From contig NZ_LT797688.1 in the NCBI RefSeq assembly GCF_900009135.1, positions 215,428 to 279,427 of the forward strand: a stretch of 64,000 nucleotides of DNA, read 5' to 3'. Under the pieces are notes generated by a model, which saw nothing but the letters and a program-made list of their open reading frames with translations, did no database searches and had not been told where the DNA came from. Position numbers and translations under genes: made by a program. This document shows positions 5,436 to 32,570 of this stretch, one piece after another. The first letter of the stretch is position 1; each line of letters opens with the position of its first letter. This DNA comes from Planktothrix sp. PCC 11201. Its GTDB lineage: Bacteria; Cyanobacteriota; Cyanobacteriia; Cyanobacteriales; Microcoleaceae.

Positions 5436-5485
5436 GATGGAATAGGTTATGATTGATTGACGTACACCTTGCAAAAATAGACTTT
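5436..5485 (+). repeat. Left copy of 50-nt direct repeat flanking the Doc module
   Basis: This 50-nt segment matches 6282-6331 at 44 of 50 positions without gaps. Both copies contain CACCTTGCAAAAATAGACTTT. The left copy lies just beyond the 3' end of the doc-like gene. Confidence 0.9.
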
Positions 5486-5516
5486 AATAGTGATCGCTAT
5501 TTTTTCCAGTTTATTA

Positions 5517-5903
5517 TCATATAGTCATAGAATTTTTTCTTAACCATTGGGCTAAAGATTCCTGAGTTTGTTGGTCAGTTGCTAACTGTTCCATCATTTG
5601 CACAACCTCGATTTCGGGAACTTCCAGCAAATAGTCATTGACTAACAAAAAAGTTGCCATAACTACAAAAGCAGTGCGTTTATTACCATCAATAAATGGA
5701 TGGTTTTTAGCCAAACCATAACCATAAGCCGCAGCTAGGTCAAATAAATCAGGTTGACCGTAAGCAAATAAATGTCTGGGTCTGGCTAAACTTGCAGAAA
5801 GGAGATTTTCATCCCTTATTCCTAAACTACCCCCATGCTGCTGAATTTGATACTGATGGATAACTTGAACAATTTCTTCAAAAATCCATAACGGTTCATT
5901 CAC
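5517..5903 (-). CDS. Doc-type Fic-domain toxin (death-on-curing family)
   Basis: The 128-residue protein carries the Fic/Doc active-site motif HPFIDGNKRTA near residues 68-78, with the catalytic His and the anion-binding GNKR. Doc of phage P1 phosphorylates EF-Tu; other Fic enzymes transfer AMP. Small size and motif form place this one with Doc (kinase-type), but the target is not visible. It overlaps the preceding antitoxin-like gene by 4 nt, a typical toxin-antitoxin arrangement. The whole module is bracketed by a 50-nt imperfect direct repeat. Confidence 0.88.
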   Translation of the reverse strand: MNEPLWIFEEIVQVIHQYQIQQHGGSLGIRDENLLSASLARPRHLFAYGQPDLFDLAAAYGYGLAKNHPFIDGNKRTAFVVMATFLLVNDYLLEVPEIEVVQMMEQLATDQQTQESLAQWLRKNSMTI

Positions 5904-6181
5904 TTCGCTAATTCCCGTAACGCATTTTTATACTTCTCGCTAATAACTTGATAAGCTACTATTACCTTGTCAAATTCAGGCTGATCACAAGTTGAGGAAT
6001 TATCCGAACCCGTCTTCTGTAATTGTTCAGGTAGTTTCCGGTGTAGTAAATCTATATACTTGCTATCTAAATCTCTAGCTTTTTGGGCAATAGAATTCAA
6101 AGAAGCTAGGGCTTCTGGTAACAATTCATCCGGTAACTCTTGGGCTAAGGTAACGATTTTTTGACGTATTTCTTGAGTCAT
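5900..6181 (-). CDS. Putative antitoxin partner of the Doc-type toxin
   Basis: A 93-residue, charged, mainly helical protein upstream of and overlapping the Doc toxin by 4 nt, hence probably its antitoxin. The N-terminus (EIRQKIVTLAQELPDELLPEALASLNSI) predicts amphipathic helices but lacks a recognisable Phd/YefM fold. It contains a run of polar residues (TGSDNSST) that could be a linker before the toxin-binding tail. The function is assigned from position only. Confidence 0.65.
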   Translation of the reverse strand: MTQEIRQKIVTLAQELPDELLPEALASLNSIAQKARDLDSKYIDLLHRKLPEQLQKTGSDNSSTCDQPEFDKVIVAYQVISEKYKNALRELAK

Positions 6182-6281
6182 GGTTATTGCCTATAATATT
6201 TTAAATTATTAGTCAAATTTTGGGATTATTGACCCGTCACCCCCTCAATTTAACACCTGGAAACCAAAACCACCAAAAACA

Positions 6282-6331
6282 GATGGGATAGGTTACAGTT
6301 GATTGACGCCCACCTTGCAAAAATAGACTTT
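6282..6331 (+). repeat. Right copy of 50-nt direct repeat flanking the Doc module
   Basis: Gap-free 44/50 match to 5436-5485. It ends 42 nt before the ATG of the next gene, so the ancestral copy probably belonged to that gene's upstream region. Confidence 0.9.
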
Positions 6332-6373
6332 TTAGTCAATATTGAAGATATTACCTTTGCTCAGATTCTATCC

Positions 6374-7078
6374 ATGTCAGACTCAAACCCAAAGATTAAT
6401 CCTCCTGAACGGGGATATCTGACGTTTCTAGTCCCCCTGGCGGTGGTTTTGTTTATCCTCCAGAAAGCATTCCCCTTAGCAATTTTAACCGTTGGGGGAT
6501 GGGGGTCTTGGCGGGTGTGGAAATATTATCAACAGCGTCAACAGGAGCAGTTAGCGACCTTGGATGAGGTGTTTTATCGGTTAATTCGGGAAAACCAAGG
6601 ACGAATTACGGCCTTAGATTTGGCCATGCACACCCAACAGTCGGGGACAAAAGTCCAGGAATATCTTGACCAACGGGCCACCGAATTCGCCGCCCAATAT
6701 GAAATTACCGATGTGGGCGGGATGATTTACTATTTTCCCACCGCCCAACCTTCTCAGACCGTTGAAGACCCTCTGCTGGTTGTTTCTAAATCGGAAAAAG
6801 AAAACCCTAATTCCCTGGTCTTATTTCCCGTCAACCCGGCGTCTGGTTCTATTTTACCCGAAACCTTAAATCAGTCGGAACTTGCCCAACGGTTGGGGGT
6901 GCATCCGACTACCCTCAGCAAGTGGAAAACCAAACCGGAATTTTCTGACTGGAGTTATCAACGTGACCCCGATGCTATCTGTTGGAGTTATTCGGCGGAA
7001 ACGAAACGGTTTTCTTCCCAAAAGTCTAACAAAAAAATTAGCAAAATTAGTGAGTTAATGAAGAAAAATAAAGTTTAG
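6374..7078 (+). CDS. Conserved cyanobacterial membrane protein with C-terminal HTH-like segment
   Basis: About 234 residues from the ATG at 6374. A TTG extension to 6299 would lie inside the 50-nt repeat and is not favoured. One or two membrane segments lie near the N-terminus (YLTFLVPLAVVLFILQKAFPL and on). A soluble region follows with a helical fold (LDEVFYRLIRENQGRITALDLA) resembling a winged helix. The C-terminal SELAQRLGVHPTTLSKWK looks like a helix-turn-helix. A membrane-tethered regulatory or adaptor role can be imagined but is inference. The neighbouring gvpV is 53 nt downstream on the same strand. Confidence 0.7.
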   Translation: MSDSNPKINPPERGYLTFLVPLAVVLFILQKAFPLAILTVGGWGSWRVWKYYQQRQQEQLATLDEVFYRLIRENQGRITALDLAMHTQQSGTKVQEYLDQRATEFAAQYEITDVGGMIYYFPTAQPSQTVEDPLLVVSKSEKENPNSLVLFPVNPASGSILPETLNQSELAQRLGVHPTTLSKWKTKPEFSDWSYQRDPDAICWSYSAETKRFSSQKSNKKISKISELMKKNKV

Positions 7079-7131
7079 GACTTATACAAATTCAATTGTT
7101 ACAATGAGTTCGTAGTTATACCAAAATTATT

Positions 7132-7458
7132 ATGCGTCCTTTTCGTTCTCAACGTCCTATTTTACCAAAAATTAGCACTATGCCTCGCCAAAAAACCGAA
7201 GCAACGCTCTACCGCAGTTTATATCAATTAGCGGTAGAGAAAAAACGGTTACAAGAGGAGTTAGAAAGTTTAGGACAACGCTTTGAAACCGTTACTCAAC
7301 GTTTAGAACAAATTGAAACTCAAATCCAAGGGCTAGAAACCGACGTTAAACAAATTGCTCAACCGAAACCCCCAGAAACCAAAACGACCCAACCTCCGAC
7401 TTCCACTCCTCCTAAATCTAAACCCGGTTCTGTTTCAACTTTCACTTTAGACTATTAA
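7132..7458 (+). CDS. gvpV: Gas vesicle protein GvpV-like
   Basis: A 108-residue protein with a basic N-terminus and the segment TMPRQKTEATLYRSLYQLAVEKKRLQEEL. This resembles GvpV of cyanobacterial gas-vesicle clusters, recalled from memory and not aligned. Residues 30-75 predict a coiled coil; the tail is Pro/Thr-rich (PPETKTTQPPTSTPPKSKP). Accessory Gvp proteins of this kind are thought to help vesicle assembly or act as minor components. It is convergent with gvpG, 75 nt away, and the gvp context supports the call. The tail may be lineage specific. Confidence 0.62.
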   Translation: MRPFRSQRPILPKISTMPRQKTEATLYRSLYQLAVEKKRLQEELESLGQRFETVTQRLEQIETQIQGLETDVKQIAQPKPPETKTTQPPTSTPPKSKPGSVSTFTLDY

Positions 7459-7533
7459 TTGGACGGGAGAATAGAAAAAAAATTGATAATTGAGGGAAAC
7501 ACAAAGACACGAAGGATGGGAAAGGATCATAAT

Positions 7534-7791
7534 TTAGTCTATTTCATCTTCTTCTTGGTTTGCTTCATCTTCTAAGGCTTGAATTTGTAGTAATAATTCT
7601 TCTTCTTGAACTTCAAAATCTTCCTCTGGAATATCCCCCATATCAAAGGCTAACTGGAGCGCCAATAACCGCTTACCTAAATTTTCTTTGTCATCAAGTT
7701 CCGCTTCCGCCCTTTCTAGGAGTTGTTCCCCAATCCAGATTACACCTTCAAAGGGTGCTGTGATCGGAGAAAGTAATAATCGTAATACCAT
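7534..7791 (-). CDS. gvpG: Gas vesicle protein GvpG
   Basis: An 85-residue acidic protein with the GvpG start VLRLLLSPITAPFEGVIWIGEQLLE and a glutamate-rich helical C-terminus (EEEDFEVQEEELLLQIQ type). GvpG is an accessory protein needed for gas-vesicle assembly together with GvpF/L, J and K. It lies 11 nt after gvpF on the same strand, so the two are almost certainly co-transcribed. Confidence 0.88.
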   Translation of the reverse strand: MVLRLLLSPITAPFEGVIWIGEQLLERAEAELDDKENLGKRLLALQLAFDMGDIPEEDFEVQEEELLLQIQALEDEANQEEDEID

Positions 7792-7802
7792 AACACCTCG
7801 GA

Positions 7803-8540
7803 TTAAGGGTTGAGTTGGGCAAAATTAAACGCGGCTGTAAAGTTATTATAGCGAATTCGCAGGCGGTTATTAAAATAGTGATCTAGTTCTTCTATTTTAT
7901 CTCCAAATTGGGGTTCCATATCCCAAGGAATTAAATAGGCTGCGTTATAAATCATGGCACTGGTTAAATTATCATTTTCGACAATTTCTTGTGCTAGGGG
8001 GTTTAATATCTGCTGAAATTTGCTGATAATTTCCTGTTGACGATCTTGCATCGCCCGTTCAATTTCTTGACCGATACCGATAATTTCATCCATACTCAGA
8101 CGTTTACCTTCTAAGCTATCGCGTTTTTCCCTTAACCCTTGATTTTCTGTCATTAAAAGGTTTAATTCTTCGGTTTCTTCCCAAAATATTTTCACCCCAA
8201 CTTCCCGTTTACCTTCTAATTTATCGAACAATTCTTTTAACCGATCTTGATAGGGAACAATTAACTGCTCTTTCACATTCTCCCAATCTTTTACAATTAA
8301 TCCAAATTGCAGGGGTAAAACCGTTCGATATCCATGTTGCATTACCTTTTCTAATACATCTTCATGGCCTAATAGGTTGCGCCGACTGGCTAAATAACGT
8401 TCTTGTTGAGTCTCGGAATATAAAAAGCTAAACTCATCAACGGGATGGGTTTGTATCGGTTGTTTATCTAACCCATGCAAGGCTAAAGGTCGGACTCGGT
8501 TAGTCGGTAAAATCCCATATAAATATAAACCATTTCCCAT
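7803..8540 (-). CDS. gvpF: Gas vesicle protein GvpF/GvpL family
   Basis: A 245-residue protein with the GvpL/F start GLYLYGILPTNRV and the family segment VLPLQFGLIVKD. The central charged helical region (about 110-180) and C-terminal RLRIRYNNFTAAFNFAQL are typical of the family. GvpF is an accessory protein that contacts GvpA and is required for vesicle nucleation. Naming as F or L is conventional in cyanobacteria; I use F. It is followed closely by gvpG and preceded by gvpK with a 126-nt gap that holds a tandem AATTAAACCC motif near the gvpF start. Confidence 0.88.
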   Translation of the reverse strand: MGNGLYLYGILPTNRVRPLALHGLDKQPIQTHPVDEFSFLYSETQQERYLASRRNLLGHEDVLEKVMQHGYRTVLPLQFGLIVKDWENVKEQLIVPYQDRLKELFDKLEGKREVGVKIFWEETEELNLLMTENQGLREKRDSLEGKRLSMDEIIGIGQEIERAMQDRQQEIISKFQQILNPLAQEIVENDNLTSAMIYNAAYLIPWDMEPQFGDKIEELDHYFNNRLRIRYNNFTAAFNFAQLNP

Positions 8541-8666
8541 AATTAAACCCTATTAATTAAACCCGTCGGCTGTGTAAGCGATCGCACCAACACCTATTAT
8601 AAACCTTAACGTCAACTCTCCAATATAGAAGGGAACACCGCAACACAGAAGGAAATGATACAAGAG

Positions 8667-9128
8667 TTAGAGAGGTTTGGAGGTTAGGACTAATCTTAGT
8701 TTTGCATGAATTAAGTTCAGTTGTGCTAACCCTAAATCTACACTTCCCTCGACCACAATTCCCGTATTCATTAACCGATCTAATAATTCCAAAATCGAAG
8801 GATTTTGTGTGGTTTCCCCTGGATAATAGCTTCCTGATTTGGGTAATAATGTTCCAAATTCCGATAACTCAATATTCAAGTCTGTCGGGTCTATTTCAAA
8901 GATTTCACATAGTTTTAACACCTGAATTTCTAATTGTTGTAAACTCTGTGCTGCCCGATCTAATTCTTCTTCAGTAAGGGTATTTCCTTCCATCCGTCGG
9001 ATGACTTGGGCTTCCATTAACTGTCGAATTAGTTCCACCAAGGTCAACACCAATGGCGCTAAACCCGCATCTTTTCCAGAAGATTTCGGCGTAATAATGG
9101 TTTCTATCGAAGGTTCAGAAGATGACAT
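8667..9128 (-). CDS. gvpK: Gas vesicle protein GvpK
   Basis: A 153-residue protein with the GvpK core GLAPLVLTLVELIRQLMEAQVIRRMEGNTLTEEE (residues about 22-55) and DLNIELSEFGTLLP. GvpK is an essential minor accessory protein of gas-vesicle formation. It is the first gvp gene of the minus-strand group gvpK-gvpF-gvpG. The main structural genes gvpA and gvpC, and gvpN/J, are not in this window, so the gvp genes are likely split over more than one locus. A hairpin repeat (9145-9193) lies directly upstream of the start. Confidence 0.9.
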   Translation of the reverse strand: MSSSEPSIETIITPKSSGKDAGLAPLVLTLVELIRQLMEAQVIRRMEGNTLTEEELDRAAQSLQQLEIQVLKLCEIFEIDPTDLNIELSEFGTLLPKSGSYYPGETTQNPSILELLDRLMNTGIVVEGSVDLGLAQLNLIHAKLRLVLTSKPL

Positions 9129-9144
9129 TTGTTTAAAATGCTAT

Positions 9145-9193
9145 GGTTGTAATATTTTATCGTAGGGGTTTGGTCTCCAAACCCTCTTTGCTT
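9145..9193 (-). repeat. Dispersed hairpin repeat, copy 1
   Basis: This 49-nt element contains the 8-bp perfect stem GGGTTTGG/CCAAACCC with loop TCT. It matches 35603-35651 at 46 of 49 positions, and one stem pair differs in a compensated way. It begins 2 nt after the stop of the SagB-type gene and ends 16 nt before the gvpK start. It may therefore act as a partial terminator or processing site. Confidence 0.85.
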
Positions 9194-9195
9194 CT

Positions 9196-10728
9196 CTACC
9201 TGGGTCTACCTAATGTTGTAATATAAAGCACGGCTTCATCCGTAGGAATACCCAAAACTTCATTTACCTGATCATCAAAAAATCCCCCAATTCCACTCAC
9301 GCCTAAACGCAAATAAAAAGCCCCTAAATTTAAGCGTTGTCCGAGATGACCGGCATCTAAGTGTAAATAGCGGTAAACCCGATCCCCATAATTGGCGATC
9401 GCTTTTTTCAAATCCGCCGTATGAAATAATACCGCCGCCGCATCCCGTCCTAAATCCTGTTGTAAACACAAATAGTACAACTCCTTGCGAAAATTCTTAA
9501 AGCGAATTTGCCTTAATTCTTGGGCTTTGGGAGCATAATAATAACATCCATCCTCTAAACCCGAGACTCCAGAAACTGCAACAAAAGTTTCAATTAAACT
9601 CAAATCAAAATAATCTGGAGAACCATCTAACCCTTGATGAATATAATGGTAAGGTTGATAGGTAAAATCTAAAAGGGCTAAAAGTTCATTTAACATGAGT
9701 TCAGCCCCATTATAATTGCGGGTAGATCGTCTTTTTAAAATGGTTTTTTCTAAACCTGATAGATTTTTACCCCAATCAATGGAACTCGTCACCGTTGAAA
9801 TTTTTGTGCAAAATGGGAAATTATATTTATCTTCTAATATTTCGTCGGTTTCTAAAAGTTTCCAACCTTGAGTTCCAGAGGAATCTGTTTCTATTTTTGT
9901 CGATTCATGCAAATAATCCAACAGTTTTCCATCGGGAATATTTGGGTAATCGATATTAGTTGCAGAAGGTAAAGCCGTTCTTAAAAGCGGTAAGTTTTCT
10001 TCAATTTGCAGTAAATCAGCTAGGGCTAAAACCGCGATCGCTCCTTCAGCATCCGTATCCAAATATAACAATTGATTCAGAATATCATCGGCAAATCCTC
10101 CGATTAAATGGGGTCGATAATCATTCATCGCCGCCATTAATTCAATATTACCTAATAAATGACCCGTATCTAAACAAATGCGCCGATAAGCCCGATCTTG
10201 ATAGCGCCAAGCAGAACGGAAAAAAACCGCCGATGTGACTAATGCTAAATGGGTATTTTCTAATGCTGGATGCCAAAAACAAGCATCTCGTAAATCCGGC
10301 CAAACTTGATTTTCCCAAAATTGAACTAAACCATGGGTTTGGGCTTGATAATGATATAAACCCGCAGGTAAAATCGCCGTCCCCCTGGAAATTAAATAAA
10401 TTTCCGCCGGATACAAACCCCCCGCCGAAGGTGCCGCCCTCAGATAATGGACTCCCGCCATGGTGGGGAGTTTGGCGGTCAAACCATAACTATGCAGCAA
10501 AAAATGGGATAAACGCTGCCAAAGTCGGATTTTAGGATCACTAGACGGGGTTTCGTCCGTGTCCCGCAGGTAGGGTTTAAGGTCAAAGACTGTGCCGATT
10601 TTATACTCTTTAAAGGGAATGGGCTGTTTTTCCCAGTCCAAGGTCTGACCTTTCAACCCTAGGGTTTCGGGGTCATATTTCGTGCGTTCATGGTAGTGTT
10701 GGGCAATGGATTTTGGAGACTCTGACAT
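9196..10728 (-). CDS. SagB/ThcOx-type dehydrogenase (two nitroreductase-like halves)
   Basis: A 510-residue protein built of two nitroreductase-fold halves, each with an RS-T/S-R-like entry and a glycine-rich end: LRAAPSAGGLYPAEIYLI in the N-terminal half, and LKRRSTRNYNGAELMLNELLALLDF and AGHLGQRLNLGAFYLRLG in the C-terminal half. SagB-type enzymes are FMN-dependent and oxidise azolines in peptide maturation, but many cyanobacterial members have no peptide cluster. No precursor peptide or cyclodehydratase is visible nearby. It precedes gvpK by 67 nt on the same strand, with a hairpin repeat between. Confidence 0.78.
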   Translation of the reverse strand: MSESPKSIAQHYHERTKYDPETLGLKGQTLDWEKQPIPFKEYKIGTVFDLKPYLRDTDETPSSDPKIRLWQRLSHFLLHSYGLTAKLPTMAGVHYLRAAPSAGGLYPAEIYLISRGTAILPAGLYHYQAQTHGLVQFWENQVWPDLRDACFWHPALENTHLALVTSAVFFRSAWRYQDRAYRRICLDTGHLLGNIELMAAMNDYRPHLIGGFADDILNQLLYLDTDAEGAIAVLALADLLQIEENLPLLRTALPSATNIDYPNIPDGKLLDYLHESTKIETDSSGTQGWKLLETDEILEDKYNFPFCTKISTVTSSIDWGKNLSGLEKTILKRRSTRNYNGAELMLNELLALLDFTYQPYHYIHQGLDGSPDYFDLSLIETFVAVSGVSGLEDGCYYYAPKAQELRQIRFKNFRKELYYLCLQQDLGRDAAAVLFHTADLKKAIANYGDRVYRYLHLDAGHLGQRLNLGAFYLRLGVSGIGGFFDDQVNEVLGIPTDEAVLYITTLGRPR

Positions 10729-10862
10729 AAGATTAACCCGATGCAGAAGAATAACGCTTTTCTTTAGTGTAGACTTTTATTTTCAGTTTCTTCCTATTTT
10801 CTGAAATTGATTTCTACTTTTGGGAATATTTGGGTGTCTGATACCCAAAATCTAACAGACAA

Positions 10863-10966
10863 TATCAATCTTGATTATAGCGCTTAAATTTGTAACTCCT
10901 TGATCACATTTGCGATCGGTGTTAATATGTTATTTAACAGTAATAATTATACTCTAGTCAAAAATA
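10863..10966 (+). repeat. Left copy of 104-nt direct repeat flanking the YefM/YoeB module
   Basis: Matches 11560-11663 at 100 of 104 positions without gaps. It contains a -10-like TATACT at 10948-10953, so it may carry a promoter for the antitoxin gene that starts 42 nt downstream. Confidence 0.93.
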
Positions 10967-11008
10967 TAAGATTTGGTAGAATTAATTTTATAGATTCAGA
11001 GAGGTTGA

Positions 11009-11272
11009 ATGGAAATTTTAAGTGCAACTGAGGCTAAAGCTAATTTATTAAATTTGCTTGAACAGGTCAATCAAGATCATTTACCTAGAATGATTACCAG
11101 TCAAAATGGGGATGCTATTTTAGTTTCAAAAGAAGACTGGGAAAGTTTGCAAGAAACACTTTATTTACAATCTATTCCGGGTTTTGTGTCCGAAATCAAA
11201 AAAGCTGCACAGTCAAATGATTGGGTATCGGAAGAAGAGTTTATGAGGGCGTTAGATGCTGTGGAAGATTGA
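11009..11272 (+). CDS. Phd/YefM-family antitoxin
   Basis: An 87-residue protein with the YefM/Phd DNA-binding fold at the N-terminus (ILSATEAKANLLNLLEQVNQDHLPRMITSQNGDAILVSKEDW) and a flexible acidic C-terminus that would bind the toxin. It should repress its own promoter with the toxin as co-repressor. A GAGAGG precedes the start by 6 nt. It overlaps the YoeB-type toxin gene by 17 nt. The pair sits between two 104-nt direct repeats. Confidence 0.88.
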   Translation: MEILSATEAKANLLNLLEQVNQDHLPRMITSQNGDAILVSKEDWESLQETLYLQSIPGFVSEIKKAAQSNDWVSEEEFMRALDAVED

Positions 11273-11513
11273 ATTTAGCCGTGATGCTCTTAAAGATGTC
11301 AAAAAGTTGAAGTCTGCTAATTTGGAAAACAATGTGAAAAAATTGGTCGAGATATTAAAACAAAACCCCTATACTCCTCCTTATGAAAAGTTATCAGGAG
11401 ATCTTCAAGGATACTATTCAAGGCGAATTAATATTAAACATCGTCTTGTCTATTCAATTGATGATATAACTAAAACGATTAGAGTTATTTCAGTTTGGTC
11501 ACATTATGAATGA
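11256..11513 (+). CDS. YoeB/Txe-family mRNA interferase toxin
   Basis: An 85-residue RelE-superfamily toxin. LSGDLQGYYSRRINIKHRLVYSI and the C-terminal VISVWSHYE match the YoeB/Txe signature, including the conserved Arg and His of the active site and the terminal His-Tyr. YoeB cleaves mRNA at the ribosomal A site. It overlaps its antitoxin gene by 17 nt, which suggests translational coupling. Confidence 0.9.
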   Translation: MLWKIEFSRDALKDVKKLKSANLENNVKKLVEILKQNPYTPPYEKLSGDLQGYYSRRINIKHRLVYSIDDITKTIRVISVWSHYE

Positions 11514-11559
11514 GATGAATTTCATGGATAAGGGTTTCAAGCTGAGTTCTATAATCGAT

Positions 11560-11663
11560 TATCAATCTTGATTATAGCGTTTAAATCTGTAACTCCTTGA
11601 TCACATTTGCGATCGGTGTTAGTATTTTATTTAACAGTAATAATTATACTCTAGTCAAAAATA
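11560..11663 (+). repeat. Right copy of 104-nt direct repeat flanking the YefM/YoeB module
   Basis: Second copy, 100/104 identical to 10863-10966. It ends 36 nt before the start of the NTF2-like gene, so it is probably that gene's original upstream region. Confidence 0.93.
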
Positions 11664-11699
11664 AAGTGATCGTAATTCAAGGGGAGTAAAAAATTTAGA

Positions 11700-12173: not shown

Positions 12174-12186
12174 TGTAATTTTGTAA

Positions 12187-12216
12187 GGGTGAGGCGCGCC
12201 TCGCCCCTAAAGTTTT
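12187..12216 (+). terminator. GC-rich palindromic terminator
   Basis: The 20-nt palindrome at 12187-12206 (centre GGCGCGCC) is followed by CTAAAGTTTTT. It lies 13 nt after the stop of the NTF2-like gene. Confidence 0.7.
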
Positions 12217-12260
12217 TGTCCTCTAATAACAGTCTCCTCAATGTTATGAATCACAGTGCT

Positions 12261-14204: not shown

Positions 14205-14209
14205 TTCTC

Positions 14210-14275
14210 GTAGTAAGCCCTTTAGGGCTTTCTCATTAACATTAATAATTGAATAAGCCCTAAAGGGCTTACTAC
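14210..14275. repeat. BIME-like inverted REP pair
   Basis: GTAGTAAGCCCTTTAGGGCT and its near-exact inverse (AAGCCCTAAAGGGCTTACTAC) enclose an AT-rich spacer. The element fills the gap between two minus-strand genes, ending at the stop codon of the 95-residue gene. It can form two separate hairpins or one long one. Confidence 0.9.
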
Positions 14276-14563
14276 TTAAATATCGGGTTCATCAACCATG
14301 CGACGGTCAATACTGGAGTTGAAAACCGGTTCCACCCGAATCGCTTTAATCGCACTCGGACGAACAACCATATATTCTTTAGCATTATTATCTTCTGCCC
14401 GTTGTTTGATGGGAACATTGACAAATTCGGTACTATCAAATTTGGGCAGTAAAACTTTGTTGTACCACACCTGAAAGTCTTGCATCGTGGGAAACTTAAT
14501 TTCTTCTCGATGACCCCCCTCAATCATGATGTGAACCACATATTCATCGGGCGTTCTGGGCAT
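14276..14563 (-). CDS. Conserved hypothetical protein, 95 residues
   Basis: A small protein beginning MPRTPDEYVVHIMIEGGHREE, with alternating strands and helices (DFQVWYNKVLLPKF, EYMVVRPSAIKAIRVEPVF). I recognise the style of a conserved cyanobacterial hypothetical but know no function. It has no cysteines or membrane segments. Its stop codon abuts the BIME-like repeat, and the ROK kinase follows on the same strand. Confidence 0.65.
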   Translation of the reverse strand: MPRTPDEYVVHIMIEGGHREEIKFPTMQDFQVWYNKVLLPKFDSTEFVNVPIKQRAEDNNAKEYMVVRPSAIKAIRVEPVFNSSIDRRMVDEPDI

Positions 14564-18248: not shown

Positions 18249-18263
18249 CCCCAATTAGTCCCC

Positions 18264-20253: not shown

Positions 20254-20289
20254 TAGAGTTAAAGAGACAGTGAATTCTTTTCCTCCGGT

Positions 20290-20311: not shown

Positions 20312-20336
20312 CTACAATTTGGAGTTTTTCCTAAAA

Positions 20337-22675: not shown

Positions 22676-22679
22676 AACC

Positions 22680-23429: not shown

Positions 23430-23539
23430 TCAACTGCACTGCATTGAAACGCTATATTTTAGGGAGCCCGGATGTTCCCACTACTGGGAATTGGCAATTT
23501 TCTGATCACAAAAAGTTAAGTGACTATATAGAATGCCGC

Positions 23540-24919: not shown

Positions 24920-25124
24920 TGTTAAATCAATAAATTTTCAAAAAATGCAAATCTATTATCCCTGTTTTATTATTTTAAAACGCATAAAAAAAGTAGTATT
25001 TAGTATTAACTTTAAAAATAATTATTAAGCGGAAAGTATTAACAAAAGTAATTTGGAGTTATAAAAAGTTGCCAAAAGTAGTAATAAGTAGGATAATAGA
25101 AACGAAAATACATATTTGTTTCCT

Positions 25125-26546
25125 ATGGAAATTCAGAATGTTTTGACATGGGCTAACCAGATCGTTTTCGAGAAGACGGGGAAGCATTTAAGTAGTTTGC
25201 AGCGTGGGATATTAACGGGGGTTTGGAATTATCAAAAATATGGAGATATCGCTAAAAACTATAACTGTAGTGAACCTTACACCAAAGCAAATGCTGCTCA
25301 GTTATGGAAAATCCTTTCAGAAAGTTTAGGAGAAAATCTTAAAAAATCAAATTTTCGTTCTACAATGGAAAGATATAATAACTCCAAGGTTTTAAAATTT
25401 GGTGATATTATCCATATTGGAGACAGGGATATTAATAATTTTTGTATTTCTGATCAAATCTCTTTTTTGTCAAACCAACAATACTCAGATCCAATTTCAA
25501 CATTAAAACCTAAAAATACTAAATTAAAACAACAAATAGATTTAAGGGATGCACCCAGCTTAACAACATTTTTTGATCGCACTGAAGAATTAGTTAACCT
25601 GAAACAGTGGATTTTACAAGAAGGGTGTCGAGTTGTTACTATTTTGGGTATAACTGGAATAGGTAAAACTGCGATTACCCGTCAACTTATTCCGATAATT
25701 CAAACAGAATTTGACTGTATTGTTTGGCGAAGTCTGCGAACTGTTCCACCCTTAGAAGTGCTGTTAAAGGATTTAATTAAATCCATAAATCATACAGAAA
25801 TTGAAGGTTATATAACTTGTGATACTCAATTAGGAATGTTAATTGAAGGGTTACGAGATCGCCATTGTTTAATCATTTTAGATGATGTTCAGTATTTATT
25901 TAAAAGTGGACAACTAGCGGGTAATTATCAAACAAGTTATCAGGATTATAGAACCCTATTTAAACTGATTGCGGAATTTACCCATAATAGTTGTTTTATC
26001 TTAAATAGTTGGGAACCTCCGTTAGAAATTCTGACCGCTAATTCTGACAATGACAATTTTGCTGTCCGGTTATTCCAATTACAGGGATTGGAAAAAGGAG
26101 CCGTAGAACTTCTAAAAAATCAGGGATTGGAGGATGAGAAACAATGGTCTGATTTGATTCGTTTATATCAAGGAAATCCTTTATGGCTCAGATTAGTTTC
26201 TCGGACAATTAAGCAATTATTCTCTGGAAAAGTTTCTGAATATCTGCAATATCAGCCTGTATTTTTAGGAGATGAATTAATTAATATTATCCAGCAACAA
26301 TTTAACCGATTATCAGATTTAGAGAAACAAGTGATCACGATTTTTTGTTCTGAACCTTCACCGATGCCAATTTCTGTGTTATTATCTAAAATACCTGTCC
26401 TACCCAGAGAAATATTTCAAGTCATTTTATCTTTGGAAAGACGGGGATGGATTGAAAAAAAGGTTAATCTTGATCAATCAAGTTTTACCGTTCAACTGGT
26501 GTTAAAACAGTATGTAACTGACTCATTATCTCAAATATCGGGCTGA
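25125..26546 (+). CDS. NB-ARC ATPase with vMAP-type N-terminal domain
   Basis: About 473 residues from the ATG at 25125; the TTG at 25116 is an alternative. Residues 1-90 (LTWANQIVFEKTGKHLSSLQRGILTGVWN, YDIAKNYNCSEPY-like) resemble the vWA-MoxR-associated HTH domain found in cyanobacterial STAND proteins. The NB-ARC ATPase starts near 148 with FFDRTEELVNLKQWI, followed by Walker A GITGIGKTA and Walker B CLIILDDVQYL. A winged-helix part ends the protein (LSDLEKQVITIFCSE). Many relatives continue into WD40 or TPR sensor repeats; this one stops before any repeats. It may be truncated or rely on a partner sensor. It lies inside the split urt locus. Confidence 0.8.
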   Translation: MEIQNVLTWANQIVFEKTGKHLSSLQRGILTGVWNYQKYGDIAKNYNCSEPYTKANAAQLWKILSESLGENLKKSNFRSTMERYNNSKVLKFGDIIHIGDRDINNFCISDQISFLSNQQYSDPISTLKPKNTKLKQQIDLRDAPSLTTFFDRTEELVNLKQWILQEGCRVVTILGITGIGKTAITRQLIPIIQTEFDCIVWRSLRTVPPLEVLLKDLIKSINHTEIEGYITCDTQLGMLIEGLRDRHCLIILDDVQYLFKSGQLAGNYQTSYQDYRTLFKLIAEFTHNSCFILNSWEPPLEILTANSDNDNFAVRLFQLQGLEKGAVELLKNQGLEDEKQWSDLIRLYQGNPLWLRLVSRTIKQLFSGKVSEYLQYQPVFLGDELINIIQQQFNRLSDLEKQVITIFCSEPSPMPISVLLSKIPVLPREIFQVILSLERRGWIEKKVNLDQSSFTVQLVLKQYVTDSLSQISG

Positions 26547-26705
26547 AAAATATTGCTACAACCGATTTACGGTTAGTGGTGAGATTTAAGATTGACCAAG
26601 CATTTTGTTGAAATTGATCTAGGGTTAAAGTATTTTTATTAGGAATGTAAAACCATCCAAAGTGTTGGTATAATTCCTAACAACATTAAAGCGAGGATTG
26701 GCAAA

Positions 26706-27461
26706 ATGATCGGAATTACAGAAGGAGCGGTTATGGAATCTGTAGCACCGCCGGATATTATGTTAAAAGTATCTGGATTGAATGTTTATTATGGGGAAAG
26801 TCATATTTTACGCGATGTAGATTTAAGCGTTACCCCTGGACAAATGGTCTGTTTAATTGGGCGGAATGGGGTGGGAAAAACCACTTTATTAAAAAGTATT
26901 ATGGGATTACTCAAACCCAAAACCGGGGAGATTTATTTTCAAGGTCAACCGATTACTAAAGTTGCCACGGATAAACGGGCTAGATTAGGAATTGGTTATG
27001 TTCCCCAAGGACGGGAAGTTATTCCCCGGGTGACGGTGAAGGAAAATCTATTATTAGGGTTAGAAGCATTACCCAAAAGACCGAAAGGAAAACCAGAAAT
27101 TCCTGATGAAATTTTTGAATTATTCCCCGTTTTAAAAACTATGTTATCTCGGATGGGAGGGGATTTAAGTGGCGGACAACAACAACAATTAGCTATTGCT
27201 AGGGCGTTGATGGGAAAACCACAATTATTAGTTTTAGATGAACCCACAGAAGGGATTCAACCTTCAATTATTTTAGAAATTGAAGCGGCAGTACGGGGAA
27301 TTATTCAAACAACAGGAATTTCGGTTTTATTAGTCGAACAACACTTACATTTTGTTCGTCAAGCTGACCGTTATTATGCGATGCAAAAAGGTGGAATTGT
27401 GGCTTCCGGTGCAACAAAAGATTTAAGTCAAGAAGTCATCCAACGATTTTTGGCGGTGTGA
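26706..27461 (+). CDS. urtE: Urea ABC transporter ATPase UrtE
   Basis: A 251-residue LivF-type ATPase. Walker A GRNGVGKTT, signature LSGGQQQQLAIARAL, Walker B LLVLDEPTEGIQ and switch His VLLVEQHLHF. The start is uncertain: ATG 26706 is preceded by GAGG at a good distance, but ATG 26733 (preceded by AAGGAG) and 26760 are also possible, and the conserved part begins only at LKVSGLNVYYGESHILRDVDL. It should work with UrtD. It is separated from urtD by 3.3 kb with a gene on the opposite strand, so it needs its own promoter. No GTAN8TAC box was recognised just upstream. Confidence 0.94.
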   Translation: MIGITEGAVMESVAPPDIMLKVSGLNVYYGESHILRDVDLSVTPGQMVCLIGRNGVGKTTLLKSIMGLLKPKTGEIYFQGQPITKVATDKRARLGIGYVPQGREVIPRVTVKENLLLGLEALPKRPKGKPEIPDEIFELFPVLKTMLSRMGGDLSGGQQQQLAIARALMGKPQLLVLDEPTEGIQPSIILEIEAAVRGIIQTTGISVLLVEQHLHFVRQADRYYAMQKGGIVASGATKDLSQEVIQRFLAV

Positions 27462-27592
27462 CTTGTTTCCTGAGCTTTATTTCCTAGAAGTTGTTCCGCT
27501 TCTTGCTGCGAATAAAAATAAGGAATTACTTATAATTGTATCAATCACTTTAAGTTTTTGATAGAATAGAAAAGTATAATTCCTAATATCCA

Positions 27593-28240
27593 ATGAGCCA
27601 ATTATCAGCGATTAATCTTGGTCGTAAAATTCAATCTCGATGGGTTTGGCGAGGGGTTGATTTGGTGTTATCCCCTGGGATGTGTTTGGGTTTAGTCGGG
27701 GCGACAGGAACCGGAAAAACCCTGTTAATGCGAGCATTGGCGGGGTTAGATCCCTTTGATGAGGGGGAAATTCAACTGGGAAGTCGCCCTTTAACCCAAT
27801 GTTATATCCCTCAATATCGTTCTTTAGTTATTTACTTACATCAACGTCCAGTATTATTAGAAGGAACTGTAGAAACAAATTTAAAAAGGGTTTATGATCT
27901 ATTAGTTCATCGTCAAAAATATTACAATCCGCAACGGGTAGAAAACTGGTTTTTAGATGTGGGGCGATCGCCTGATTTTCTCCAACAATCTACTCAAAAT
28001 CTATCAGGAGGAGAAACACAATTAGTGGCATTAATTAGAGGATTACAATTAGATCCATTAGTGTTATTATTAGATGAACCCACCGCCTCTTTAGATCCTA
28101 GAACCACGCAACAAGTTGAGTCTTTAATTCAACGTTGGTTAACTGAAAACCCAGAACGAGCTTGCATTTGGACAAGTCATGATCCTAAACAATTGCGTCG
28201 GGTAACTCAAGTTCAACAAGAATTACTTTCTGATCAATAA
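27593..28240 (+). CDS. fetA: FetA-type ABC transporter ATPase
   Basis: A 215-residue ATPase with Walker A GATGTGKTL, Q-loop VIYLHQRPVLLEGTVETNL (LHQRP is typical of FetA/YbbL), signature LSGGETQLVALIRGLQ, Walker B VLLLDEPTASLD and switch His WTSHD. It pairs with the FetB-type permease 21 nt downstream. In E. coli FetAB exports iron and protects from oxidative stress. Placing it beside urease and an iron importer suggests metal handling but the substrate is inferred. Confidence 0.82.
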   Translation: MSQLSAINLGRKIQSRWVWRGVDLVLSPGMCLGLVGATGTGKTLLMRALAGLDPFDEGEIQLGSRPLTQCYIPQYRSLVIYLHQRPVLLEGTVETNLKRVYDLLVHRQKYYNPQRVENWFLDVGRSPDFLQQSTQNLSGGETQLVALIRGLQLDPLVLLLDEPTASLDPRTTQQVESLIQRWLTENPERACIWTSHDPKQLRRVTQVQQELLSDQ

Positions 28241-28261
28241 TTATATCTCCCTTCTCCTAAA

Positions 28262-29056
28262 ATGTCTAGTAGTTATATTCCGATTAGTGTAGAACAATTA
28301 GCCCTATCTGTCTTATTCATTGTGATTAATATTGTCCTATCTTTAGGATTAAAATTAGGTCTAGCTCAATCCTTAATCATTGCCAGTGTACGAATGGTTG
28401 TGCAGTTATTATTAATTGGATATGTCTTAAATTGGCTGTTTACCTTATCCCATCCCTTTCCTGTTATTGCCTTAGCAATAATTATGGCAACTATCGCTGG
28501 AATTTCTAGTGTTAATCGAACCTCTCGGAGATTTGTAGGAATTTATTGGAGAAGTTTATTATCGGTTTTTATATCATCATTTTTGATTACCAATTTAACC
28601 ACCTTGGGAATTATTCAAGTGCAACCTTGGTATGATCCGCAATACTTTATTCCTTTATTGGGAATGGTATTAGGAAATACCCTGACTGGGATTTCTTTAG
28701 GATTAGATCGATTCATGGAATCCTTAGTTAATCAACGTCAAAAAATAGAAACCTTATTAGCATTAGGAGCGACCCGTTGGGAAGCAACCCATGAAGAAGT
28801 TAAAGCCGCTATTAGAACAGGAATGATCCCCATGATTAACTCAATGATGGTGATGGGAATTGTCAGTTTACCTGGGATGATGACGGGTCAAATTTTAGCG
28901 GGGGCAAATCCTTTAGATGCGGTGCGTTATCAGATTATTATAATTTTTGCGATCGCCTCAGCCACAGCTTTAGGCACATTAGGAGTGGTATTATTAGCCT
29001 GGCAAGCTCTCCTCAATTCTTCCCATCAACTGTGTTTAGATCGGTTAACGAAATAA
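28262..29056 (+). CDS. fetB: FetB-type (UPF0014) ABC transporter permease
   Basis: A 264-residue integral membrane protein with about seven membrane segments and the UPF0014 signature LIASVRMVVQLLLIGYVL and IPMINSMMVMGIVSLPGMMTGQILAGANP. It follows fetA by 21 nt. The family exports iron in E. coli. It is convergent with ureC, with a short hairpin (CCCCAAAAAAGAGTTTTTGGGG, 29091-29112) between the two stops that can serve both directions. Confidence 0.85.
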   Translation: MSSSYIPISVEQLALSVLFIVINIVLSLGLKLGLAQSLIIASVRMVVQLLLIGYVLNWLFTLSHPFPVIALAIIMATIAGISSVNRTSRRFVGIYWRSLLSVFISSFLITNLTTLGIIQVQPWYDPQYFIPLLGMVLGNTLTGISLGLDRFMESLVNQRQKIETLLALGATRWEATHEEVKAAIRTGMIPMINSMMVMGIVSLPGMMTGQILAGANPLDAVRYQIIIIFAIASATALGTLGVVLLAWQALLNSSHQLCLDRLTK

Positions 29057-29130
29057 GAAATTCCTCAATTTAATTATTCCCTACTAGAATAACCCCAAAA
29101 AAGAGTTTTTGGGGTATTATTCAACAACAA

Positions 29131-30849
29131 CTAAAACAAGAAATAACGCTGCGCCATGGGTAAAACCTCCGCAGGTTCACAGGTTAATAATTGCCCGTCT
29201 GCTTTAACTTGATAGGTTTCAGGATCAACCTCAATTTTGGGTAAAGCATCATTTAATTTCATGTCAGCTTTACTCAAATTTCGAGTTCCTGAAACCGCGA
29301 CACATTGTTTTTTTAACCCTAATTGTTCGGGAATTTTTGCCTCTAAAGCCGCTTGAGACATAAACGTTAAAGAAGTAGATGAAATTGCTTTTCCAAAACT
29401 CCCAAACATCGGGCGACCATAGACAGGTTGAGGAGTAGGAATACTGGCATTGGCATCCCCCATTTGTGCCCAAGCAATTAAGCCGCCTTTAATTACCAAT
29501 TCCGGTTTTACCCCAAAAAAAGCAGGTTTCCATAAACACAAATCCGCTAATTTTCCTTCAGCAATTGACCCCACATAATCAGAAATTCCATGGGTAATAG
29601 CCGGATTAATTGTATACTTAGCAATATAGCGTTTTACCCGAAAATTATCATGGGATGCGGTCGAATTTTCTGGGTCAGTTAATACCCCCCGTTGCACTTT
29701 CATTTTATGGGCCGTTTGCCAAGTTCTAATAATAGTTTCTCCCACCCTTCCCATCGCTTGAGAATCAGAAGAAATCATACTAAATGCCCCTAAATCGTGC
29801 AAAATATCTTCAGCGGCAATAGTTTCTCGGCGAATTCGGGACTCAGCAAAAGCCACATCCTCTGGAATATTTCGATCTAAATGATGACAAACCATCAACA
29901 TATCTAAATGTTCTTCTAAGGTATTCATCGTATAGGGACGGGTGGGATTTGTAGAAGATGGTAAGACATTTTTCTGACCACAAACCTTAATAATATCTGG
30001 TGCATGACCCCCTCCCGCCCCTTCGGTATGGTAAGTATGAATCACCCGATTTTTAAATGCTGCAATGGTCGTTTCTACGAACCCTGATTCGTTTAAAGTA
30101 TCCGTATGAATGGCAACTTGAACATCATATTCATCCGCAATTGTTAAACAAGTATCAATTGTTGCTGGGGTAGTTCCCCAATCTTCATGTAGTTTTAAAC
30201 CCATGACCCCCGCTACAATTTGTTCAACTAAACCTTGGGGTTGACTACTATTTCCTTTGCCTAAAAATCCCAAATTCATCGGAAAGGCTTCCGCCGCTTC
30301 TAACATCCGATAAATATTCCATGCACCTGGGGTACAAGTAGTAGCATTAGTTCCCGTTGCCGGGCCAGTTCCACCCCCGATCATCGTGGTAATTCCTGAT
30401 GCAATGGCGGTCTCGATTTGTTGAGGACAAATAAAGTGAATATGGCTATCAATTCCCCCTGCGGTGAGGATCATTCCTTCCCCTGCGATCACTTCCGTAG
30501 AAGGGCCGATAATAATATCAATATGATCTTGAATATAGGGATTTCCTGCCTTCCCAATCTTATAAATTTTCCCATCTTTTATCCCCACATCTGCTTTAAC
30601 AATCCCCCACCAATCTACAATTAAAGCATTAGTAATCACTAAATCTACGGCTCCATCCGCACGGGAAATTGGAGACTGTCCCATGCCATCCCGAATTACT
30701 TTTCCGCCTCCAAATTTTACCTCATCCCCATAATTTATATAGTCCATTTCCACTTCAATAATTAATTCGGTATCTGCTAACCGAATGCGATCGCCCACCG
30801 TCGGCCCAAAGGTTTCTGCATAAGCCCGCCGATCCATTTTATAACCCAT
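29131..30849 (-). CDS. ureC: Urease subunit alpha
   Basis: A 572-residue catalytic subunit that hydrolyses urea to ammonia and carbamate at a di-nickel site. Ligands are visible in order: His-x-His in [12 protein letters not shown], the carbamylated Lys in [12 protein letters not shown], His in [13 protein letters not shown] and [22 protein letters not shown], the flap His in MVCHHLD, and Asp in [13 protein letters not shown]. The start [24 protein letters not shown] is typical. ureB lies upstream on the same strand, 76 nt away, with a REP-like element in the gap. ureA and the accessory ureD/E/F/G genes are not adjacent, so the urease genes are dispersed. Confidence 0.98.
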
Positions 30850-30863
30850 TTTCCACTCCTTCA

Positions 30864-30886
30864 GTAGTAAGCCCTTCAGGGCTTTC
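30864..30886 (+). repeat. REP-like element in the ureB-ureC gap
   Basis: GTAGTAAGCCCTTCAGGGCT, a solitary copy of the family seen at 919, 964, 14210 and 46899. It lies inside the presumed ureBC transcript, 15 nt before the ureC start, so it could affect the relative expression of the two subunits. Confidence 0.85.
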
Positions 30887-30925
30887 TTTAATCATTTAAT
30901 TCTACAAGCCTAAGTCAAACTAAAA

Positions 30926-31315
30926 TTATTTTTTCTTCTTCCCCTTGTCTTTTTTATCTTTCTTAACCTTCTCTTTTGTATCCTTTTTATTTTCTTCGGG
31001 TAAATTCAAATTTAACTGACCTTCCACTAAGCCATTAAACCCATATATTTCTCGACTTCCAGCCATTGTCACCAACTCAACTTCCTGTTCATCTCCGGGT
31101 TCAAATCTAACCGCAGTTCCCGCCGGAATATTTAACCGCATTCCTTTAGTTTTTTCGCGTTTAAATTTCAGGGCTTCATTAACTTCATAAAAATGATAAT
31201 GTGAGCCAATTTGAATTGGGCGATCGCCTGTATTCGCAACTTTAATCTTTAAAGTCGGACGACCAACATTAAGTTCAATTTCACCTGCTTTAACAATCAG
31301 TTCACCTGGAATCAT
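30926..31315 (-). CDS. ureB: Urease subunit beta with unusual charged C-terminal tail
   Basis: A 129-residue subunit. The core (about 1-105) is a normal Ure[69 protein letters not shown] and [13 protein letters not shown]. UreB is normally about 100-106 residues. Here a tail of about 24 residues rich in Lys, Glu and Asp ([12 protein letters not shown] at the end) follows. It should pack with UreC and UreA in the urease trimer; the tail would protrude. A 59-nt segment of the gene (31087-31145) recurs at 32512-32570. Confidence 0.96.
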
Positions 31316-31525
31316 TGGTTGTTTCCTCTTATAATATTAATATTGCAAATCGGATCTCTTTATTATACAATAATTATATCCCATTGAAAATATTTCTTGA
31401 TGTAATTATCTAGGATTATTCCTAAATTGGCAAGAATTTAGGGATAAAACACATTGACATCGAGATTTTATTGATTTAAAATGAGAATAAGCTATAATAT
31501 TAGTGATAACAACTATATAATCAAG

Positions 31526-31978
31526 ATGAATGCTCAACAGTTAGAAAAACAACTCAATAATTTAAAGCCTGCTGAAAAATTGCAATTGATTCAAACCCTG
31601 GCTCAAAATTTAAGTGCTGATTTTTTACCCAAAGAAACCTCTCAACCTGACTCAATTGCTAATGTGGGGCGTGTTCCTATTCCGGTTTGGAAATTAGTCG
31701 GTTATCGCCGTTTGGGTTGGAGTGATTTACAAATCTTAGAAAACTTTCCGCATTTACAATCTGAAGATTTACAAACCGCTTGGAACTACGCAGAAACTTA
31801 TCCAGATCAGATCAATCAATACCTAGAAATCTATCAACAGAATCAACCTTTATCCGTGAATGATTCCCCTTGGGATGAACTTATAAACTTGATTGATCGT
31901 TGTACTGTTGATACTGGAATTACAGATTTAGCTGAAAAGCATGATCATTATCTCTATGGTAAACCCAAAATAATCTAA
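31526..31978 (+). CDS. DUF433-like antitoxin candidate with helical N-terminal domain
   Basis: About 150 residues from the ATG at 31526 (an upstream ATG at 31481 adds 15 AT-encoded residues and is less likely). The N-terminus (MNAQQLEKQLNNLKPAEKLQLIQTLAQNLSADF) is an antitoxin-like helical region. The middle part (IPVWKLVGYRRLGWSDLQILENFPHLQSEDLQTAWNYAETYPDQI) is a DUF433-type winged-helix segment that often partners PIN toxins. The stop overlaps the PIN start by 1 nt (TAATG), which supports a toxin-antitoxin pair. Confidence 0.75.
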   Translation: MNAQQLEKQLNNLKPAEKLQLIQTLAQNLSADFLPKETSQPDSIANVGRVPIPVWKLVGYRRLGWSDLQILENFPHLQSEDLQTAWNYAETYPDQINQYLEIYQQNQPLSVNDSPWDELINLIDRCTVDTGITDLAEKHDHYLYGKPKII

Positions 31979-32304
31979 TGGCTGATAAAATTTTTATTGA
32001 TACTGCGGCTTGGATTGCTTTGCTAAATAGTCGTGATGCTCTGCATGATAAAGCACGATTAATTATGGATAATTTAATGAAGCAGAAACATCCTTTAATT
32101 ACCACAGAGTTTGTTTTAATGGAGGTCGCTGATGCAATTTCCTCCCCTACGGTGCGATCAAAAACTATTGATTTTATTGATAATCTTTTATCTTTACCAA
32201 TTTTATTAATCATTCCAGCTAGTCAAGATTTATGGAAAGCAGGATGGCAATTTTATAAACAACGTCCTGATAAAGAATGGGGTTTAACTGAATCAGTGCT
32301 ATAA
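31978..32304 (+). CDS. PIN-domain (VapC-like) ribonuclease toxin, C-terminally truncated
   Basis: A 108-residue PIN domain: the first acidic site is in IFIDTAAWIALLNSRD and the second in TEFVLMEVADAI. The conserved C-terminal segment, normally of the form KEWGLTDC followed by a last strand and helix, reads KEWGLTESVL and stops. The third site is Glu instead of Asp and the last 25-35 residues are missing. The 3' end overlaps an opposite-strand ORF that seems to be cut at the same place. The gene is therefore probably a damaged toxin, and its activity is doubtful. Confidence 0.75.
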   Translation: MADKIFIDTAAWIALLNSRDALHDKARLIMDNLMKQKHPLITTEFVLMEVADAISSPTVRSKTIDFIDNLLSLPILLIIPASQDLWKAGWQFYKQRPDKEWGLTESVL

Positions 32305-32510
32305 ACCATCCGATAATTGTCCATCCTAAAAAGATATGGATCAGCCAAGTTTAATCGTGCATCAAAAGCATCAGCCCAATTATACAAACGCTGAATAATT
32401 TCTTGACTTAAAGGTAAAGTAGCTAGATTAATATTACCAACCCTGTGATCTCCAGCCCACCATAACGGATCACAACCATAATCTGCCATTAGTTTAATTT
32501 TTATCGCCAT
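32253..32510 (-). CDS. Small conserved protein with chimeric C-terminus
   Basis: An 85-residue ORF. The N-terminal 60 residues (IKLMADYGCDPLWWAG and LPLSQEIIQRLYNWADAFDARLNLADP) look like a small conserved cyanobacterial protein of unknown function. The last 20 or so residues (NYRMVYSTDSVKPHSLSGRCL) are the antisense reading of the PIN gene and do not look conserved. I infer a rearrangement joint near 32300-32330 that shortened both convergent genes. The ATG lies at the edge of a ureB fragment. Confidence 0.5.
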   Translation of the reverse strand: MAIKIKLMADYGCDPLWWAGDHRVGNINLATLPLSQEIIQRLYNWADAFDARLNLADPYLFRMDNYRMVYSTDSVKPHSLSGRCL

Positions 32511-32511
32511 T

Positions 32512-32570
32512 GTTCATCTCCGTGTTCAAATCCAACCGCAGTTCTGGGGGGAATATTTAACCGCATTCCT
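32512..32570 (-). pseudogene. ureB fragment (59 nt)
   Basis: 53 of 59 bases match 31087-31145 within ureB, in the same orientation and without gaps. On the minus strand it still reads GMRLNIPPRTAVGFEHGDEQ, against [20 protein letters not shown] in the intact gene. No other part of ureB is present next to it. Confidence 0.85.

What the first reader, a model, noticed from the sequence alone, without database searches (positions are those of the whole stretch)
5436..32570. Three toxin-antitoxin-like modules, each flanked by a different duplicated local sequence
The Doc pair (50-nt repeat), YefM/YoeB pair (104 nt) and DUF433/PIN pair (59-nt ureB piece at 31087 and 32512) all sit between direct repeats unrelated to each other but copied from nearby sequence. 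One or two could be chance; three of three suggests a shared mode of acquisition, perhaps duplication during repair or template switching, stabilised by toxin addiction.
Basis: inference. Interest (0 to 1): 0.8.

Follow-up and report, generated by a model that had tools for sequence, protein, structure and literature searches.

The report
Toxin-antitoxin pairs bracketed by duplicated sequence
In this cyanobacterial genome many toxin-antitoxin gene pairs sit between two copies of a short neighbouring sequence, a scar suggesting that they enter and leave the chromosome as small cassettes without any transposase of their own.

Summary
The three direct repeats are real: 54 nt/87%, 104 nt/96%, 60 nt/90%. 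In the window's genome 16 of 60 toxin-antitoxin (TA) clusters are bracketed by local direct repeats, against 43 of 3248 mock positions and 0 of 30 Uma2 loci, another accessory family. Direct repeats bracket 19 of 67 TA loci, inverted repeats 0 of 67. Enrichment recurs in a congener (5 of 15 PIN loci) and another genus (10 of 15, higher background). A relative with left flank, one repeat and right flank contiguous was found for 4 of 6 loci formally tested, YefM/YoeB included; six further loci examined gave none. This is the signature of 'insertion with long target duplication', known for restriction-modification genes. It does not fit all three window cases: YefM/YoeB fits; Doc is compatible but unproven; the ureB piece does not fit, since its first copy keeps both native flanks and its second lies at a rearrangement junction beyond a truncated PIN gene. 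At several loci one local repeat separates successive cassettes that differ between strains. Mechanism is inferred.

The parts
5432..5485 (+). Doc locus, repeat copy 1, next to the end of a glycosidase gene that in all nine congeners lies on another contig or more than 2 Mb from the 6299 gene
   Evidence: single copy of the repeat in the relatives aligned
5517..5903 (-). Doc (death-on-curing, Fic fold) toxin gene
   Evidence: PF02661 3e-20; TIGR01550 6e-22
5900..6181 (-). small partner gene, presumed antitoxin, no known family
   Evidence: antitoxin role inferred from position
6278..6331 (+). Doc locus, repeat copy 2, continuous with the native upstream of the 6299 gene in relatives
10863..10966 (+). 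YefM/YoeB locus, repeat copy 1; its left flank is matched in all nine congeners, and in seven of them the match runs into the repeat (in G001 and G009 it stops at 10836)
10967..11559 (+). 593-nt insert holding only the TA pair; nearly the same interval (10967-11564) is found at 97% in G005 with other neighbours
   Evidence: no terminal inverted repeats
11009..11272 (+). YefM antitoxin
   Evidence: PF02604 1.8e-15
11256..11513 (+). YoeB toxin
   Evidence: PF06769 3e-11; TIGR02116 9.5e-23
11560..11663 (+). YefM/YoeB locus, repeat copy 2, directly upstream of the 157-aa gene; left flank + one repeat + right flank contiguous in G003
31086..31145 (-). ureB internal sequence, original copy, both flanks native ureB
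31481..31978 (+). DUF433 protein (presumed antitoxin)
   Evidence: PF04255 5e-10
31978..32304 (+). PIN (VapC-like) gene, 108 codons against 136 in G006; truncated at a deletion junction near 32291
32291..32510 (-). fragments of two genes that are separate and longer in relatives (3' end of a 68-aa gene, 5' end of a 186-aa gene)
32511..32570 (-). ectopic 60-nt copy of ureB at a rearrangement junction; the ABC transporter region that follows (from about 32574) lies elsewhere in relatives

Best explanation
Small cassettes, mostly single TA pairs of about 600-800 nt, are inserted into intergenic or gene-end sites of Planktothrix chromosomes together with a duplication of about 35-160 nt of the target, giving left-R-TA-R-right where the empty allele is left-R-right. 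The inserts read carry no recombinase and no terminal inverted repeats. I therefore infer illegitimate joining at one or both ends, most likely with incoming DNA anchored by homology on one side (homology-facilitated illegitimate recombination) or repair of a staggered break. Once two R copies exist, recombination between them can remove, add or exchange cassettes, producing arrays R-TA1-R-TA2-R. Shown: enrichment, some empty sites, arrays, absence of bracketing inverted repeats. Inferred: direction (gain rather than loss) at each site, the recombination pathway, and any role of addiction in retention.
For: 16 of 60 TA clusters bracketed (14 of 58 without the window's two) against 43 of 3248 mock positions and 0 of 30 Uma2 loci, Fisher p 0.0009 (0.0019 without the window's). 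Direct repeats 19 of 67, inverted 0 of 67. Contiguous left-R-right in a relative for 4 of 6 loci formally tested: C15:84.7k in G007 (657-nt query matched end to end), C6:398k in G005, the C6:591k cassette in G001, window locus 2 in G003 (alignments of the first two). In the reverse direction G001 has a cassette between two R-like copies where G000 has one. Repeats differ from locus to locus; median length 76 nt in 21 flagged loci, some of which share a repeat. No terminal inverted repeats above chance in 8 inserts. Enrichment repeated in G001 (5 of 15) and G018 (10 of 15).
Against: The formal test failed for 2 of 6 loci, Doc and C28:611k. Beyond these six, the window's ureB locus does not fit, and C28:463k, C19:516k, C22:67k, C29:19k and the non-TA cassette L233 showed no clear empty site, so sites with one are 4 of 12 examined. 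The Doc left flank shows no significant match to the relatives, so my note was too strong. The C6:398k test used only a 15-nt left flank, because other sequence interrupts further left in G005. G003 at locus 2 is 81% identical with 31 gaps. Two of 16 clusters have repeats with weak matches elsewhere in the sample, and 6 lie in local arrays; the repeats of C19:516k and C28:611k also match several places in relatives. Neighbouring clusters share arrays, so the 16 are about 14 independent places. At C15:84.7k several relatives have left-R-TA without R2, so the order of events is not fixed. 44 of 60 TA clusters show no such repeat.
Confidence: 0.63

Rival explanations
1. The repeats come from tandem duplication of R with a TA pair, followed by deletion of parts of one unit; nothing is inserted and TA arrays only shuffle in place.
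For: Locus 2 shows a history of internal deletion: G006 and G002 carry another gene pair between R and YefM or a YoeB remnant, and G008 has an in-frame fusion remnant. At C6:589k the 86-nt repeat carries the start region of one antitoxin (MAKLQIENLP) in frame onto the next, different antitoxin.
Against: At C15:84.7k G007 has an uninterrupted single-R site without TA sequence between the flanks. Needs two or more events per locus.
Confidence: 0.15
2. The repeats were there first (dispersed small elements or pre-existing duplicates), and TA pairs are captured between them or lost from between them by homologous recombination.
For: R at C28:611k and C29:19k has weak matches elsewhere and more in relatives, as has R at C19:516k; G000 and G007 show swapped variants between copies at locus 2, as gene conversion would give.
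Against: For 8 of 16 clusters R has no comparable match elsewhere in the sampled sequence of G000; Uma2 loci in the same genome show none (0 of 30).
Confidence: 0.13
3. An unrecognised site-specific recombinase moves the cassettes, as in integrons.
For: Arrays with the same repeat between different cassettes at C22:102-113k, C6:589-592k and, in G001, at 348-362k and 673-686k.
Against: R sequences of different loci are mostly unrelated. No recombinase was sought across the genome.
Confidence: 0.05
4. Chance, or a by-product of repeat-rich intergenic DNA.
For: The G018 background is high (98 of 1660 positions, TA loci not masked there), and some repeats are rich in GCGATCGC.
Against: 0 of 30 Uma2, 0 of 67 inverted, 16 of 60 direct.
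Confidence: 0.03

Closest known systems
Insertion with long target duplication of restriction-modification genes (Nobusato et al. 2000; Furuta et al. 2010)
   Same: Gene unit of an addiction type, flanking direct repeats of long and variable length, comparison of related strains. [quoted passage not shown]
   Different: Cargo is TA pairs (PIN, DUF433/DUF5615, YefM/YoeB), host is a cyanobacterium, about a quarter of the TA clusters surveyed carry the scar, and arrays with a shared local repeat occur. The two primary papers were not read; only citations to them were seen (Furuta 2010 not held).
Homology-facilitated illegitimate recombination, as proposed for Vibrio cholerae effector-immunity arrays (PMC5361080, passages)
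   Same: Toxin-type gene pairs added at a site with one conserved flank and a variable other flank, building arrays.
   Different: There displacement of the old effector is the mark; here the mark is a duplicated stretch on both sides of the cassette.
Integron cassette arrays (recalled)
   Same: Rows of small cassettes, often TA pairs, separated by repeats.
   Different: Repeats differ from locus to locus and I saw no integrase among the ORFs of the loci read; a genome-wide search for one was not made.

Membership tests
Insertion with long target duplication | Unit present in one strain and absent at the same site in a relative | tested here: met
   4 of 6 loci formally tested; 4 of 12 loci examined in all
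Insertion with long target duplication | Long direct repeats of variable length on both sides of the unit | tested here: met
   21 of 67 loci, median 76 nt, range 36-406 nt
Insertion with long target duplication | Single repeat copy at the empty site, flanks continuous with the outer flanks of the two copies | tested here: met
   met for 4 loci, not for Doc and C28:611k; the ureB case fails because both flanks of copy 1 are native
Insertion with long target duplication | No terminal inverted repeats as in transposons | tested here: met
   8 of 8 inserts: longest exact match 5-7 nt, equalled by at least 51 of 300 shuffles
Insertion with long target duplication | Movement observed in the laboratory or in recent isolates | not testable with these tools
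   sequence comparison only
Integron cassette array | Common attC-type sites across loci | tested here: not met
   by sequence similarity only: repeats of most different loci do not match each other, with a few weak matches; attC-type folds were not examined
Integron cassette array | IntI integrase | not tested
   no genome search left (one search was the last)
Homology-facilitated illegitimate recombination | One end homologous, other end joined without homology | tested here: inconclusive
   TA-bearing relatives share left-R at C15:84.7k; the same is expected from simple descent

The most novel reading that the evidence does not exclude
TA pairs in these cyanobacteria form a recombinase-free cassette system: each insertion copies a stretch of its target, and that copy then serves as a landing and exchange site for further cassettes, so that rows of TA pairs grow and turn over at each locus with its own private repeat.
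Probability: 0.35. Interest if true: 0.8.

Novelty: new variant of a known kind. Interest (0 to 1): 0.62.

Why it matters
Solitary chromosomal TA pairs spread widely, yet in many cases nothing visible moves them. A scar that marks about a quarter of the TA loci surveyed in one genome, with empty sites in relatives, gives a way to count gains and losses of TA pairs along a strain tree and to test whether addiction biases them. It also extends a mode of movement described for restriction-modification genes to the wider class of addiction modules.

Tried and rejected
Common insertion mechanism for all three window loci: rejected for the ureB case, because copy 1 keeps both native flanks and copy 2 joins fragments of other genes to a remote segment. 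Doc as a proven insertion with target duplication: withdrawn after the left-flank match proved no better than shuffles (420-904 of 2000 shuffles as good in six relatives) and 0 of 7 relatives' loci were contiguous. Transposon ends: not found. Dispersed repeat family as general cause: not supported, though C28:611k, C29:19k and C19:516k remain open. C22:67k could not be tested for an empty site because its left flank holds a dispersed repeat; C28:463k and C19:516k gave occupied or rearranged alleles only; C29:19k was looked up but not resolved; the non-TA cassette L233 showed the same spacing in G007 and G001 and no empty site.

Limits of the counts: 12 of 79 TA hits had no fetched locus and were left out (3 of PF02604, 9 of PF01850). 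The Doc family was not surveyed. Uma2 used the best 30 of 90 hits. PIN replicates used 15 of 40 (G001) and 15 of 34 (G018). The 5 flagged in G001 lie in 3 neighbourhoods; in G018 two flagged loci (L296, L298) have the same match score and nearly the same repeat and two more (L305, L309) are neighbours. In G000 the 16 flagged clusters include two neighbouring pairs (C6:589-592k, C28:186-191k). Mock positions overlap and are not independent. TA loci were masked in the G000 and G001 controls but not in the G018 control. A looser rule without length and identity caps flags 21 of 67 loci.

Literature: eight searches of the held library. No listing pointed to long target duplication around TA pairs; listings only, except the passages read (reference list only).

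Full report
What was checked. The window is G000:C6:215428-279427 of a 5.99-Mb draft genome with nine congeners at hand. A protein scan of named genomes found five relatives whose contig lengths equal those of G001 (Planktothrix rubescens PCC 7821), G007 (P. paucivesiculata PCC 9631), G004 (Planktothrix sp. UBA8402), G005 and G006 (two Oscillatoriales MAGs), so the genus is Planktothrix by inference. All three repeats exist at the stated places and, under the survey thresholds, are the only short high-identity local direct repeats in the window.

Locus 2 (YefM/YoeB). In G006 and G002 the left flank and R are followed by another two-gene unit; the G006 pair has no Pfam or NCBIfam match. YefM (G006, truncated) or a small YoeB remnant (G002) comes after it. 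In G000 and G007 R is joined directly to the YefM leader, and a second R stands between YoeB and the 157-aa gene. A query of left flank + one R + right flank matches G003 in one piece (81%, 31 gaps) and not the other six of the seven relatives' loci tested (G005 and G007 were not in that test). Nearly the same cassette interval (10967-11564) occurs at 97% in G005 with other neighbours. The two copies carry swapped variants in G000 and G007, which suggests exchange between copies.

Locus 1 (Doc). The relatives whose loci were aligned have one copy of R upstream of the 6299 gene, and copy 2 continues into that native context. Copy 1 stands between Doc and a glycosidase gene that in all nine congeners is on another contig or far away. 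The left flank of copy 1 does not match the relatives better than shuffles and no contiguous site was found (0 of 7). The locus is compatible with the same process but unproven.

Locus 3 (ureB piece). Copy 1 is inside an intact ureB with both flanks native. The PIN gene is cut short at about 32291. It is followed by a 53-nt end of one gene, about 172 nt of the start of another, the 60-nt ureB copy, and then a segment that lies elsewhere in relatives. This is a mosaic of breakpoints with a copied patch, not a target duplication around the TA pair.

Survey. Five TA families were searched in G000, with 79 hits, 67 with fetched loci, merged to 60 clusters. A cluster counted if one direct repeat copy (35-170 nt, >=80%, bit score >=50, copies 150-3000 apart) lay on each side: 16 of 60, 14 of 58 without the window's two. 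The same rule at mock positions in 400 kb of the same genome gave 43 of 3248, coming from five of twenty stretches. By my reading of the ORFs two of those five (L203, L205) also hold TA-like genes near the repeats. Uma2, a numerous accessory family, gave 0 of 30. By family: PIN 10 of 30, DUF433 5 of 12, Phd/YefM 2 of 8, PemK 1 of 8, ParE 1 of 9 loci. Inverted repeats bracketed 0 of 67. In G001 5 of 15 PIN loci (3 neighbourhoods) against 31 of 1660 positions; in G018, another genus of the family, 10 of 15 against 98 of 1660, with TA loci unmasked in that control. Of the 16 repeats, 8 have no comparable match elsewhere in the sampled sequence, 6 belong to local arrays, and 2 have weak matches elsewhere (my classification); in relatives the repeats of C19:516k and C28:611k match several places. 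The scar is not limited to TA pairs: one control segment with a protein of no known family is bracketed the same way (L233).

Empty sites. The clearest is C15:84.7k. G000 has left-R-PIN pair-R-right; G007 has left-R-right, its left flank matching that of R1 and its right flank that of R2; several others have left-R-TA or left-R with a third kind of right flank. R there covers the start region and first codons of the neighbouring gene, so the gene stays intact. C6:398k in G005 and the cassette at L219:6122-6909 in G001 behave alike. Four of six loci formally tested have such a site; six more loci examined (window locus 3, C28:463k, C19:516k, C22:67k, C29:19k and L233) gave none that I could show.

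Arrays. At C6:589-592k G000 and G001 share TA pairs in the same order, but each has one cassette that the other lacks, next to copies of the local repeat. In the same array an 86-nt repeat carries the start region and the first ten codons of one antitoxin onto a different antitoxin. At C22:102-113k and in G001 at 348-362k and 673-686k, four to six copies of one local repeat separate different small gene units.

Mechanism. Insert sizes in eight read cases are 593-792 nt, with no terminal inverted repeats above chance; seven of them hold a TA-type pair, the eighth (L219:6122-6909) two small ORFs, one of them tested and without a match over its family's cut-off. I commit to insertion with long target duplication through illegitimate joining, probably anchored by homology on one side, followed by recombination between the repeats. 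The concentration of lengths around 76 nt could reflect the size of the break or gap, or loss of longer repeats by recombination; the data do not decide. Polarity at each site is inferred.

Against the literature. Long and variable target duplications are described for restriction-modification genes (PMC3874152 and PMC3031569, passages). Effector-immunity arrays of V. cholerae were explained by a process akin to homology-facilitated illegitimate recombination (PMC5361080, passages). In eight searches of the held open library I saw no listing that reports the scar around TA pairs; subscription papers are mostly not held, so priority is uncertain.

Noticed in passing
L221:1855-2558 (-), L218:8005-8597 (+), L382 and L380 (reverse strand): A clan-AA (retropepsin-like) aspartic protease gene with a small partner gene recurs inside the TA arrays as a two-gene cassette; only the L221 copy was scanned (TIGR03698, 1.8e-9, below its cut-off), the others were recognised by eye.
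   Followed up: partly
L104:3473-4276 (-): Two-gene unit of 154 and 111 codons between R and YefM in G006, similar in G002; the G006 proteins have no Pfam or NCBIfam match. Perhaps an undescribed TA pair.
   Followed up: partly
L233:2776-3494: A 129-aa protein of no known family bracketed by 74-nt direct repeats (91%) between a crcB-like gene and a LysR-like gene (names recalled from the sequences): a non-TA cassette with the same scar, with similar spacing of the flanks in G007 and G001.
   Followed up: partly
L107:1-941 and 2020-2960; L099:1-608 and 2021-2628 (reverse strand): G009 and G001 carry an exact or nearly exact 0.6-0.9-kb local duplication of part of the window 8711-9651 region beside locus 2.
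   Followed up: no
window 9145-9193 and 35603-35651: A 49-nt direct repeat (94%) 26 kb apart.
   Followed up: no
window 918-1017, 14209-14277, 30864-30910, 46897-46952: A dispersed repeat of about 24-56 nt with four to five copies in the window.
   Followed up: no
G000:C24:208613-209234 (L118): A second Doc pair, 85-89% identical to the window's, without flanking local repeats.
   Followed up: partly
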